Of a DNA stretch of 64,000 nt, positions 31,312 to 47,357 are shown one piece after another (within the stretch, counting starts at the first letter, position 1; each line of letters starts with the position of its first letter). Location of the stretch: contig NZ_JAKKFD010000023.1 in assembly GCF_022229005.1 (NCBI RefSeq), forward strand, positions 62,001 through 126,000, given 5' to 3'. Position numbers and translations under genes: made by a program. The notes under the pieces were generated by a model that saw only the letters and a list, made by a program, of their open reading frames with translations, made no database searches and was not told the DNA's origin. Source of the DNA: Micromonospora trifolii. Its GTDB lineage: Bacteria > Actinomycetota > Actinomycetes > Mycobacteriales > Micromonosporaceae.

Positions 31312-31941
31312 ATGACGGCGCGGGCGAACCGGATCGCGACGCTGACCGACGCGGCCATCGAACTGATCGCCGACGGTGGCATGCGAGCCCTGACCCACCG
31401 GGCGGTCGACGGCCGCGCCGGAATGCCGCCGGGCACCACCTCCGCGTACCTGCGGACCCGACAGGCGCTGATCGAGGCGGTCGTCGGACGGCTCGCCGAA
31501 CGGGACCGGGCCGACCTGGCCGCGTACGACCTGCCGACCGGCCCGCCGCCCCCGACCCCTGCCCCCCGGCTCGACAGCGGCGACCTCGACGCGCTCGCCA
31601 CCGGCGTCGCCGAGGTGCTCGACCGCTGGTTGAGCACCGGACGCAGCCGGAGCCTCGCCCGCTACGCGTGCCTGCTGGAGGCGGTGCACCGGCCCGAACT
31701 GCGCGGCATCCTGCACCACGGCACCGGCCTGCGGGTGCAGGCCCGGGACCTGCTGGCCAGGGCCGGGGCCACCGACCCCGACCGGCAGGGCGATCAGTTC
31801 GTCGCGTTCGTGGACGGGCTGCTCTTCGACCGACTGGCCGGCGCGGGCGCGCTCACCGCCCCACCGCCCGGCACCACGGCCAGCCGCGCCGACCTGAGCG
31901 CCGCCGTCCGTACGCTGCTGCGAGCCCTCACCGGAAGCTGA
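31312..31941 (+). CDS. TetR-family transcriptional regulator
   Basis: The 209-residue product has an N-terminal helix-turn-helix (ATLTDAAIELIADGGMRALTHRAVDGRAGMPPGTTSAYL-type pattern, about residues 8-47) and an all-helical ligand domain. GGAGG lies upstream of ATG 31312. It is divergent from the flavin monooxygenase gene with a palindromic operator between them, the usual layout for a repressor that releases the monooxygenase gene when its aromatic ligand is present. Confidence 0.88.
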   Translation: MTARANRIATLTDAAIELIADGGMRALTHRAVDGRAGMPPGTTSAYLRTRQALIEAVVGRLAERDRADLAAYDLPTGPPPPTPAPRLDSGDLDALATGVAEVLDRWLSTGRSRSLARYACLLEAVHRPELRGILHHGTGLRVQARDLLARAGATDPDRQGDQFVAFVDGLLFDRLAGAGALTAPPPGTTASRADLSAAVRTLLRALTGS

Positions 31942-32320
31942 CCCGGTCGCCGAGCGTCTCGCCGGGCCTGCTGGCGTCCGGGCCTGGTCGGGTGCGGGCC
32001 TGCTGGCGTGCGGGCCTGCTGGCGCGTGGGCACCCGGGCCGGGGCGTGGCGCAGCCCGGTGCTCAGGTCCGGCGCGTGATGGGAGACGATCGCCTCGGGA
32101 GGCCGTGACCCACCGGTCTGGTGCCGTGGGCGGGCCCTTTCGAGCTGAATCGTTTACGACATCGCGCCTGATTCGTTTGCGGCATCAGCTCCAAAGGGGG
32201 GAGCGGACGGCATGCTGCGGTGAGCCGGCGGTGCGATGTCGCGCGTTGGCGGTGCGCCGTCGTGAGCTGGCAGCACGGTGTCGGACCGGAGTGCGGCAGC
32301 GCGGCGGGAGAGGTTGGGCG
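31942..32320. other. Intergenic region with direct repeats and a paired repeat element
   Basis: This 379-bp stretch has no convincing gene. It holds three copies of the 13-mer GGGCCTGCTGGCG (31964-31976, 31996-32008, 32012-32024) and the paired repeat element at 32135-32198. Whatever promoter serves the FUSC gene should lie here, but I see no clear -10/-35 pair. Confidence 0.7.
32135..32198. repeat. Paired intergenic repeat element, copy A
   Basis: The ends form an inverted repeat: CCCTTTCGAGCTGA (32135-32148) against TCAGCTCCAAAGGG (32185-32198), 13 of 14 matching. Inside are two 18-bp direct repeats, TGAATCGTTTACGACATC (32146-32163) and TGATTCGTTTGCGGCATC (32169-32186), differing at three positions. 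A second copy lies at 46869-46976. TCGTTTACGA inside the unit is itself a short palindrome. Confidence 0.8.
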
Positions 32321-33445
32321 ATGGTGCGGTTCAGCGGTCTGCGGACTGCCGGCGGGCGATTGCGGCACGGCTGGCGGCCGGTGCTGGAGGCGACCGTCGC
32401 GGCGACAGTGGCCTGGCTGCTGGCCACCCGGCTGCTCGGGCACCCGCAGCCCTTCTTCGCGCCGGCCGCCGCGCTGATCGTCCTCGGGCAGGCCCGGGGG
32501 CAGCGCATCCGCCGGGCCGTCGAGGTCATCCTCGGGGTCGCCGCCGGGGTGCTCGTCGCGGACCTGGTGGTGCAGGCGCTCGGCCCGGGCAGCACCTGGA
32601 CGGTTGTCACCGTCATCCTGTTCACCGTCCTCCTCGCGGTGGCCTTCGGGGCCACCGGCGTGACGCTGGTGCAGGCGGCGGTCTCCGCGCTCTACCTGGT
32701 GGTGGTCGCACCGCCGGACGGCTCGTTGGTGCCGTTCCGCTTCGTCGACGCGCTGGTCGGCGGCGCGGTCGCCCTCGCGGCCAGCCTGCTTGTCGACGCC
32801 CGGCATCCCCTCGCCCCGCTGGTCGCGGAGGTGCGGCGGACCTTCGACGGGTTGGCCGGGCTGCTGGGCGGGATCGCCGACGCGTTGGACGACAGCGACG
32901 AGCCGGCGGCGGTCGCCGCGCTCAGGCAGGCGCGGGGGATGGACGCCCGGGTGGACGGGCTGCGCGACGGTGTGCTGGCCGCCGGTGAGGCCCTGCGGCT
33001 CAACGTCCGTCGACGTCGGCACATCGGTCGGCTGCGCTCGGTGGACGAGTCGATCCGCCAGATCGACTACGCGGTCCGTAACGTCCGGGTGCTGGCCCGT
33101 GCGGGCGTGACCCTCAGCCGGCTGCACACCCCGGCCCCGCCCGAACTGGGCGCCGCGCTGCGGTCACTGGCCGAGGCGGTCCGTCAGGCCGGCGCGGCCC
33201 TCGCCGCCGACCTGAACGGGCAGGAGGAAACCGCCGACCGGCACGCGACCCTGGCCGACGAGTCGGCGTTGGCCGCGGTGCACGCCGCCGGGCAGCTCTT
33301 CGGTCCCACGCAGACCCTCCCGCTAGCGATGATCATCGGTCAGGTCAGGGCCACTGCCATCGACCTGCTGCGCGGCGTCAACCCGGAGGACGACGCCGCC
33401 GTCCTCGCCCGCGTCGACGACGCCCTCGGCCTCCCGCCGGTCTGA
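32321..33445 (+). CDS. FUSC-family aromatic acid exporter-like membrane protein
   Basis: The 374-residue product has a hydrophobic N-terminal half with about six helices (LEATVAATVAWLLATRLLG, FAPAAALIVLGQARGQ, TVVTVILFTVLLAVAFGATG) and a soluble helical C-terminal half, as in FUSC/ArAE exporters. GGGAGAGG precedes ATG 32321. The transported molecule is unknown. Copy A of the paired repeat lies about 120 bp upstream. Confidence 0.8.
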   Translation: MVRFSGLRTAGGRLRHGWRPVLEATVAATVAWLLATRLLGHPQPFFAPAAALIVLGQARGQRIRRAVEVILGVAAGVLVADLVVQALGPGSTWTVVTVILFTVLLAVAFGATGVTLVQAAVSALYLVVVAPPDGSLVPFRFVDALVGGAVALAASLLVDARHPLAPLVAEVRRTFDGLAGLLGGIADALDDSDEPAAVAALRQARGMDARVDGLRDGVLAAGEALRLNVRRRRHIGRLRSVDESIRQIDYAVRNVRVLARAGVTLSRLHTPAPPELGAALRSLAEAVRQAGAALAADLNGQEETADRHATLADESALAAVHAAGQLFGPTQTLPLAMIIGQVRATAIDLLRGVNPEDDAAVLARVDDALGLPPV

Positions 33446-46465: not shown

Positions 46466-46801
46466 ATGAGCTGGTTCAATCGGCGGTCACGGGGTGCCGA
46501 GGCGACCCCGACGAAGCTGGACCGGGAGGCGACCCGCGACGACCTCGCGGCGCTGGAGGCGTTCATCGCCACCCGACGCGGGGTGGAGTTCTACCTGGAG
46601 CCGGAGACGACCGCGACGGACACCACAGTGGTGGCGATCGCCCACGACGGCGAGTGGATCCGCCGCCGTACCGGAACGCCCCGCGCGGCCGGGGCCATCG
46701 CCCGCAAGCACGCGGTGCCGCTGTACGAGGCGGCGCGCACCGGCTACCCGGAGCGGATGCGAACCTGGAGCCGAGCCCACCCGGAACGCCACGCCCGCTG
46801 A
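46466..46801 (+). CDS. Hypothetical small cytoplasmic protein
   Basis: The 111-residue product begins MSWFNRRSRG and includes LAALEAFIATRRGVEFYLEPETTATDTTVVAIAHDGEW, a pattern repeated in actinomycete proteins of unknown function. Charged and basic at the C-terminus, with no signal peptide. GAGGGGCGGGG lies just upstream of ATG 46466. It is divergent from the sigma factor gene. Confidence 0.75.
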   Translation: MSWFNRRSRGAEATPTKLDREATRDDLAALEAFIATRRGVEFYLEPETTATDTTVVAIAHDGEWIRRRTGTPRAAGAIARKHAVPLYEAARTGYPERMRTWSRAHPERHAR

Positions 46802-46868: not shown

Positions 46869-46976
46869 CCTTCGGAGCTGAATCGTTGACGGCATCGCCG
46901 TACGTCCGGACCGGAAGCCGAGGAGCGGGCCGGAAGCCGAGGCGGCTGAATCGTCTACGACATCAGCTCCAAAGGG
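46869..46976. repeat. Paired intergenic repeat element, copy B
   Basis: The element has the same plan as copy A: an outer inverted pair (CCTTCGGAGCTGA at 46869, TCAGCTCCAAAGGG ending at 46976) and two 18-bp units, TGAATCGTTGACGGCATC (46879-46896) and TGAATCGTCTACGACATC (46947-46964). The units are 50 bp apart here because a segment with two CCGGAAGCCGAGG copies (46911, 46931) lies between them. Confidence 0.78.
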
Positions 46977-47129: not shown

Positions 47130-47325
47130 CGTTGACCGGCGGCGCGGCGGTGTGGCAGCATTCGCGGCCTGACGGCAGTGAAGGAAGTCGGTGCGAATCC
47201 GACGCGGTCCCGCCACTGTCACCGGGGAGCGATCCCCCCTCGTGAGTCACGGCCGTGTGTCTGCGGTTGGAAGGCCGGGGGAGAGCGTCGATCCGGAAGC
47301 CAGGATACTTCGGCCGTCGGGATGT
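47130..47325 (+). promoter_or_regulatory. Cobalamin riboswitch of the corrin operon
   Basis: The B12-box region GACGCGGTCCCGCCACTGT (47200-47218) is preceded by GGAAGTCGGTGCGAATCC (47182-47199), with GAAGCCAGGATAC at 47295-47307 in the 3' domain; these are the conserved cobalamin aptamer blocks. It lies about 265 bp upstream of cobN. When adenosylcobalamin or a related corrinoid is plentiful the riboswitch should lower expression of the operon. The boundaries are approximate. Confidence 0.93.
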
Positions 47326-47357
47326 ACCCCAGGGCGTGGACACCCGAGGAGGACCCG

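What the first reader, a model, noticed from the sequence alone, without database searches (positions are those of the whole stretch)
32135..32198. Two dispersed copies of a paired 18-bp repeat element
Copy A here and copy B at 46869-46976 share an unusual plan: an outer GGAGCTGA inverted pair and inner TGAwTCG(N)xCATC direct repeats, with variable spacing. They lie in intergenic leaders of unrelated genes. They may be a REP/MITE family or a binding site of a broad regulator.
Basis: seen in the sequence. Interest (0 to 1): 0.55.

Follow-up and report, generated by a model that had tools for sequence, protein, structure and literature searches.

The report
Paired REP-like repeats of Micromonospora
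The two copies belong to a family of short paired DNA repeats, found so far only in the bacterial genus Micromonospora, whose two ends stay almost unchanged between species while the DNA between them changes freely; they resemble known 'REPIN' repeats but lack the sequence tag and the partner enzyme that define those.

Summary
Copies A (32136-32197) and B (46869-46975) each have two 28-29-bp arms: an outer CCTTTGGAGC tag plus an 18-bp quasi-palindrome TGAnTCGTyTrCGrCATC, tags outwards, around a free spacer. The genome has 34 core matches against 0 in the control; I read 16 outward-facing pairs and 5 lone arms. The arm occurs in 51 of 151 Micromonospora genomes and, of 85 genera of the order, only in that one. 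None of 38 cluster representatives lies inside a gene; convergent intergenes are favoured, divergent ones avoided. Spacers run from 0 (one 39-bp hairpin) to about 865 bp, while arms change mainly at a few free positions: the signature of a recognised sequence. Architecture and placement match REPINs, but the GTAG tag and a linked Y1 transposase were tested and not met, so I do not file it as a REPIN. Regulator operators and classical MITEs fit less well. A second family (CTGTmGAGCTGCCCC-RNNNNY-GGGGC, 33 of 151 genomes) follows the same plan. New variant of a known kind; the acting protein is unknown and no clean insertion site was found.

The parts
32136..32163 (+). copy A, left arm: outer tag CCTTTCGAGC (32136-32145) and 18-bp core TGAATCGTTTACGACATC (32146-32163)
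32164..32168 (.). copy A spacer, 5 bp (gcgcc); the same place in M. parva (G030, L094/L158) has a spacer of about 280 bp with degenerate core repeats
32169..32197 (+). copy A, right arm: core TGATTCGTTTGCGGCATC (32169-32186) and outer tag AGCTCCAAAGG (32187-32197)
46869..46896 (+). copy B, left arm: outer tag CCTTCGGAGC and core TGAATCGTTGACGGCATC
46897..46946 (.). copy B spacer, 50 bp; at the same place in Micromonospora sp. ALFpr18c (L044) the spacer and one core are absent (39-bp single unit)
46947..46975 (+). copy B, right arm: core TGAATCGTCTACGACATC and outer tag AGCTCCAAAGG

Best explanation
Copies A and B are members of a Micromonospora family of paired palindromic intergenic repeats that works like a REPIN population. 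The basic unit is a 39-bp imperfect hairpin, tag-core-tag. Most elements are the opened form, tag-core-spacer-core-tag, with tags outside. SHOWN: anatomy, restriction to one genus in the genomes searched, outward pairing, intergenic placement biased to gene 3' ends, presence at the same places in several species, free turnover of the spacer (0 to about 865 bp, arrays of cores, one-core forms at places where relatives have two), and position-specific conservation of the arms. INFERRED: the family was seeded by a non-autonomous, hairpin-using copying process whose enzyme is not identified, and is now mostly sessile. Direct core repeats and imperfect palindromes let replication slippage and template switching delete, amplify or 'correct' the inner part (L.R to single, arrays, LL or RR). 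The arms are kept because a sequence-specific protein still recognises CTnTGGAGCTGA..TCG..CG.CATC.
For: Own genome: 34 cores against 0 control; by my reading closed pairs, all outward-facing, 5 lone arms, one probable chance match (C6) and one place not fetched (C23). Genus: exact arm in 51 of 151 genomes, controls 0. Order: 22 of 397 genomes, 1 of 85 genera. 139 distinct elements: 108 direct-core, 16 LL, 5 RR, 10 single, in 38 flank clusters; 121 of the 139 fall in 20 clusters of two or more. One convergent DUF4032/amidohydrolase intergene read in 20 genomes shows absent, single, opened and half forms. Spacers at one place run 20-769 bp, at another 0-219. Right arms, not selected by the search: mean changes per position 1.8 at conserved core positions, 8.6 at free ones, 15.0 in flanks. 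Placement 20 tandem, 15 convergent, 3 divergent of 38, none inside genes; convergent excess P=0.001, divergent deficit P=0.0004 by intergenic bases. The 39-mer folds at -23.7 kcal/mol, z -8.3. In sp. MW-13 two unrelated places share 208 bp starting exactly at the element's left end.
Against: No enzyme is linked: Y1/RAYT (PF01797) is present in only 21 of 51 arm-bearing genomes (23 of 100 others), and none of 23 distinct Y1 loci read has a first-family arm nearby. No GTAG tag in this family. No clean empty site or target duplication was found. Persistence is uneven: copy A's arms are missing in G028, G004 and G024, and copy B's place has no arm in five relatives whose locus holds both flanks. 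Selection at each locus is not something a passive REPIN model predicts. The amplification seen in sp. MW-13 belongs to a larger repeat that carries the arms along.
Confidence: 0.55

Rival explanations
1. Operator pairs of a broad regulator or nucleoid protein: each arm binds a protein and the pair is bridged or looped; the elements are not mobile.
For: Arm conservation is sequence-specific and not stem-like: tag position 4 changes one-sidedly in many elements. Two outward-facing sites with free spacing fit a bridged pair. Cores are spread along the single contig of G133 (my reading).
Against: Neighbours are of varied families (28 neighbours at 15 of 38 clusters scanned). Sites avoid divergent intergenes and prefer convergent ones. 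Half and collapsed forms survive. Patchy within the genus, 51 of 151.
Confidence: 0.2
2. Transcription terminator or 3'-end RNA hairpin conserved between genes.
For: Strong hairpin; 35 of 38 clusters lie downstream of at least one stop codon.
Against: Spacers of hundreds of bases, some holding a gene. Pairing at tag position 4 is often broken and compensatory changes are few: 4 seen against 1.4 expected (P=0.03) in one subset, 0 against 0.6 in the other.
Confidence: 0.12
3. Classical MITE: terminal inverted repeats of a DDE transposon with deleted insides.
For: Outward inverted tags in every closed element; one moved copy of 208 bp.
Against: Insides are hardly shared between loci. The commonest form has direct, not inverted, cores (108 of 139). 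No target duplication seen. Change is position-specific.
Confidence: 0.08

Closest known systems
REPINs / REP head-to-head dimers, GTAG and CGTC superfamilies (PMC3116915: outline and abstract; PMC3733652: passages)
   Same: Short palindromic units, extragenic, doublets with tags outside and variable DNA between, predicted hairpins, lone units as remnants, tens of copies or more.
   Different: No GTAG in this family (TTGG at that place; GTAG or GTCG in the second family). Cores are mostly direct, so the doublet is an imperfect hairpin. Spacers up to about 865 bp. No linked Y1 transposase found. Arms conserved position by position in orthologues.
BOX elements of Streptococcus pneumoniae (features recalled; PMC3049150 seen only in the listing)
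   Same: Intergenic modular repeat: two fixed end modules and an inner module of variable number.
   Different: Unrelated sequence by recall, not tested; here both ends carry the same tag facing outwards and the inner core usually occurs twice.
Integron attC sites (features recalled; PMC2727003 seen only in the listing)
   Same: Two inverted simple sites, each box - short variable centre - box, around a variable terminal part, foldable as one hairpin; most like the second family.
   Different: No search for an integron integrase was made; elements are not between gene cassettes as a rule; attC box sequences were not searched for.
IS-derived MITEs (recalled)
   Same: Short, mostly non-coding elements with inverted ends.
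   Different: Inside hardly shared, no target duplication shown, direct inner repeats.

Membership tests
REPIN/REP (RAYT-linked) | extragenic palindromic unit of 20-40 bp that can form a hairpin | tested here: met
   39-mer single folds at -23.7 kcal/mol, z -8.3; 0 of 38 cluster representatives inside genes by a simple gene finder of my own
REPIN/REP (RAYT-linked) | outward-facing (head-to-head) doublets with variable spacer | tested here: met
   16 of 16 closed pairs in the own genome. The scan (129 pairs, 10 singles) itself requires outward arms; the unfiltered neighbour list has 124 outward pairs, 4 same-way pairs of tagged arms, 7 pairs that include an untagged core, and no inward pair within 1.5 kb
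REPIN/REP (RAYT-linked) | GTAG (or CGTC) tag at one foot of the hairpin | tested here: not met
   258 distinct tag sites (loci fetched for the element): this family reads TTTGG or close variants there; GTAG or GTCG mainly in the second family
REPIN/REP (RAYT-linked) | a Y1 (RAYT) transposase in the genome, flanked by the repeat | tested here: not met
   PF01797 in 21 of 51 arm-bearing genomes. 23 distinct Y1 loci read, 18 of them from 15 of those 21 genomes: none has a first-family arm; one (L410, G124) has a second-family array beside an IS605-like tnpA. Not every Y1 copy was read
MITE | target-site duplication at an insertion polymorphism | tested here: inconclusive
   no clean filled/empty pair
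MITE | copies at different places share their inside | tested here: not met
   spacers compared between 38 clusters: seven matches, of which one is the MW-13 pair, two look like one locus split by orientation, and four are short or weak
transcription-factor operator | placed at promoters of regulated genes | tested here: not met
   3 of 38 divergent, 15 of 38 convergent
integron attC | integron integrase and gene-cassette array | not tested
   no integrase search was made; single genes occur inside a few elements, but the near-identical MBL gene is also found at five other places without arms within the 1.5 kb read

The most novel reading that the evidence does not exclude
Micromonospora carries a hairpin-site system of its own: at least two repeat families with the same outward tag plan (CCTnTnGAGCTG) and different palindromic cores with a free centre, copied and rearranged by an unidentified enzyme that recognises two facing simple sites, attC- or REPIN-fashion, but neither a RAYT nor an integron integrase.
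Probability: 0.2. Interest if true: 0.75.

Novelty: new variant of a known kind. Interest (0 to 1): 0.5.

Why it matters
REPIN-like repeats are tied in print to RAYT transposases (PMC3116915, abstract). Here is a family with the same plan and placement in a high-GC actinobacterial genus, with no such link found, and with arms conserved locus by locus. It offers a clean case for asking what keeps paired palindromes in bacterial intergenes: an unknown enzyme, a bound protein, or structure. Five searches of the open-licence library that paired Micromonospora with repeat terms listed nothing that describes the family (2, 0, 0, 4 and 0 papers, judged from the listings); most subscription papers are not held.

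Tried and rejected
RAYT as the partner: the genus-wide Y1 search shows at most a weak link (21 of 51 against 23 of 100, P=0.024, not corrected for kinship), and none of 23 distinct Y1 loci read has a first-family arm (24 loci fetched; L215 and L406 are the same place). The exception for the second family, L410 in G124, is an array beside an IS605-like tnpA/tnpB pair (IS605 is my reading of the two proteins); I could not tell linkage from chance.

RNA stem selection: the covariation test is weak (4 compensatory changes against 1.4 expected, P=0.03, in the free subset; 0 against 0.6 in the selected subset).

Insertion boundaries: three candidate rows (two distinct places), the DUF4032/amidohydrolase intergene and seven second-family sites of M. 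lupini searched in five other genomes gave no clean filled/empty pair. Of the matches I aligned three; the G039 one was laid in the wrong orientation and says nothing.

Mobile gene cassette: the MBL-fold gene inside the element of M. saelicesensis and M. noduli looked like captured cargo, but the near-identical gene lies at other places without arms within the 1.5 kb read in five other genomes, so it probably moves by itself and landed in the spacer. The doxX gene inside another element looks deleted in M. foliorum rather than gained elsewhere (my reading).

MW-13 amplification: first looked like an active MITE made of these arms. In 12 of the 20 regions fetched (L297-L308) the flanks outside the arms are shared too, and ends CTAGTGCC...GGCACTAG were recognised in 8 of the 20, both ends in 3. 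So the arms are passengers there.

Rfam: in the window only the cobalamin riboswitch reached its threshold, nothing at the elements (other loci were not searched).

A single-unit pattern with exact tags found nothing in the own genome.

Full report
OBSERVATION. Both copies are in the sequence as described. Copy A: 32136-32197, left arm CCTTTCGAGC+TGAATCGTTTACGACATC, 5-bp spacer, right arm TGATTCGTTTGCGGCATC+AGCTCCAAAGG. Copy B: 46869-46975, left arm CCTTCGGAGC+TGAATCGTTGACGGCATC, 50-bp spacer, right arm TGAATCGTCTACGACATC+AGCTCCAAAGG. A lies 194 bp after the stop of a gene at 31312-31941 and 123 bp before a gene at 32321-33445 (own simple gene finder); at the orthologous locus L071 these are TetR- and FUSC-type genes. 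B lies 67 bp after a gene ending at 46801 and upstream of a cobalamin riboswitch (47156-47332) and a long gene from 47591 (CobN-like by recall, not tested).

FAMILY IN THE OWN GENOME. The 18-bp core with up to 3 mismatches has 34 places in 7.25 Mb; the reversed pattern has none. Reading the 30 loci fetched: 16 closed pairs, every one with tags outwards, and 5 lone arms; the C6 match has no tag and looks like chance; the C23 match was not fetched; three further listed cores lie inside fetched loci. Some partner arms have more than 3 mismatches and were found only by the arm scan. Pairs come as L.R (direct cores, the form of A and B), RR and LL (inverted cores).

RANGE. The exact arm GGAGCTGANTCGTNNNCGNCATC is in 51 of 151 genomes of the genus with 0 control matches and in 22 of 397 genomes of the order, all of one genus among 85.

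ANATOMY ACROSS SPECIES. In 1.31 Mb of loci, nearly all fetched because they hold or neighbour the element, 258 distinct sites of CCTNTNGAGCTG were listed; apart from six second-family sites, they are followed by the core or a recognisable variant in one orientation or the other (my reading). 139 distinct elements: 108 L.R, 16 LL, 5 RR, 10 single 39-mers, in 38 flank clusters; 121 of the 139 lie in 20 clusters of two or more. Two cluster pairs (5/26 and 31/37) look like one locus split by orientation, since LL elements have none, so 36 loci is the safer number. Spacers at one place run 20-769 bp (cluster 1), 0-219 (cluster 13) or 81-865 (cluster 31). Of the 114 loci L039-L152, chosen by one exact L arm, 105 hold a closed element, so the partner arm is mostly kept. 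Copy A keeps a 5-bp spacer in six of the seven relatives of its cluster and has an array of degenerate core repeats in the seventh, M. parva; its arms are missing at that place in G028, G004 and G024. Copy B's cluster has four relatives (L044, L127, L148, L184), and L044, sp. ALFpr18c, holds a 39-bp single unit; no arm was found in L185, L186, L188, L189 and L191, which hold both flanks, nor in L187 and L190, which show only one. A convergent DUF4032/amidohydrolase intergene (families) read in 20 genomes shows no first-family arm in nine (G034, G118 and G028 with 26 bp; also G109, G072, G110, G002, G056, G024), single units in four (G030, G029, G075, a worn one in G054), opened elements in four (G133, G093, G052, G106) and halves in three (G000, G040, G004).

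CONSTRAINT. In 17 clusters of L.R elements, ungapped identity is 0.91-0.99 in the arms, about 0.60 in spacers and 0.50-0.70 in flanks; indels lower the last two. Left arms are partly selected by the search; right arms are not, beyond the detection limits of my scan. In 16 clusters (97 sequences) right arms show on average 1.8 state changes at conserved core positions, 2.5 in the tag (15 of its 27 at one position), 8.6 at the five free core positions and 15.0 in the flanks. The five free positions were set from the family consensus, so the contrast says that orthologues vary where the family varies. Stem selection is not needed: the most changeable tag position changes on one side only in most cases and compensation is weak. 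I read this as recognition of sequence.

PLACEMENT. Of 38 clusters, one representative each, 20 are between tandem, 15 between convergent and 3 between divergent genes, 0 inside genes (36 after merging the splits: 18, 15, 3). Intergenic bases in loci L039-L152 divide 50, 17 and 33 per cent; convergent excess P=0.001, divergent deficit P=0.0004 by bases, weaker by number of intergenes (0.002 and 0.03). 30 proteins were scanned with Pfam: 28 neighbours at 15 of the 38 clusters and 2 genes inside elements. The families are varied; TetR_N, Amidohydro_1 and Response_reg each turn up at two clusters, one element lies between two DUF6232 genes, and three proteins got no family.

MOBILITY. One pair in Micromonospora sp. 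MW-13 (L078, L108), at unrelated places of one contig, shares 208 bp that begin exactly at the left end of the element and run about 54 bp past its right end. The same genome has 12 similar LL elements (L297-L308) whose flanks are shared as well; the larger repeat has ends CTAGTGCC...GGCACTAG in the copies where ends were recognised, so their spread is that repeat's. No clean empty site was found. The Y1 transposase family is not linked: 21 of 51 arm-bearing genomes against 23 of 100 others, P=0.024 without correction for kinship, and no first-family arm at 23 distinct Y1 loci, 18 of them in arm-bearing genomes.

SECOND FAMILY. CTGTMGAGCTGCCCCNNNNNNGGGGC is in 33 of 151 genus genomes, controls 0, up to 43 matches (G131). 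Of 13 sites read in G045, three are symmetric 38-bp singles, seven are outward-facing pairs and three are open at one side. The centre is mostly RNNNNY with near-free middle bases (my reading). It co-occurs with the first family (first family in 19 of 33 against 32 of 118, P=0.002, not corrected for kinship) and lies in the same intergenes in places. It is not linked to Y1 (10 of 33 against 34 of 118).

READING. The plan, placement and turnover are those of REP doublets. The library papers describe head-to-head REP dimers mostly 20-100 bp apart with DNA inserted between partners (PMC3733652, passages) and REPINs as inverted doublets tied to RAYTs (PMC3116915, abstract). Against my stress on the missing enzyme, the same passages say that tyrosine transposase genes and REP families show no obvious correlation across species. 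Two features that I take as defining were tested and not met, so it is filed as REPIN-like, not as a REPIN. Inner changes are what replication slippage between direct cores (collapse, arrays) and template switching in an imperfect palindrome (L.R to LL or RR) would give; this is inference. What keeps the arms is open; a sequence-specific protein is the simplest guess.

Noticed in passing
   Followed up: partly
   Followed up: partly
L412-L417, L136: A lone metallo-beta-lactamase-fold gene, 92-98 per cent identical DNA over about 670-740 bp, sits at unrelated places in several Micromonospora genomes; homology ends close to the gene.
   Followed up: partly
L158 1218-1552 / L094 7157-7491 (M. parva): At the place of copy A the spacer is grown to about 280 bp with many degenerate 23-bp core repeats.
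   Followed up: partly
L410 1261-1511 (G124): Array of second-family arms with about 52-bp period directly beside an IS605-like tnpA/tnpB pair.
   Followed up: partly
window 47156-47332: Cobalamin riboswitch (RF00174, 86 bits) downstream of copy B.
   Followed up: no
window 31965-32030: Short imperfect tandem repeat (gggcctgctggcg...) in the intergene of copy A (seen).
   Followed up: no
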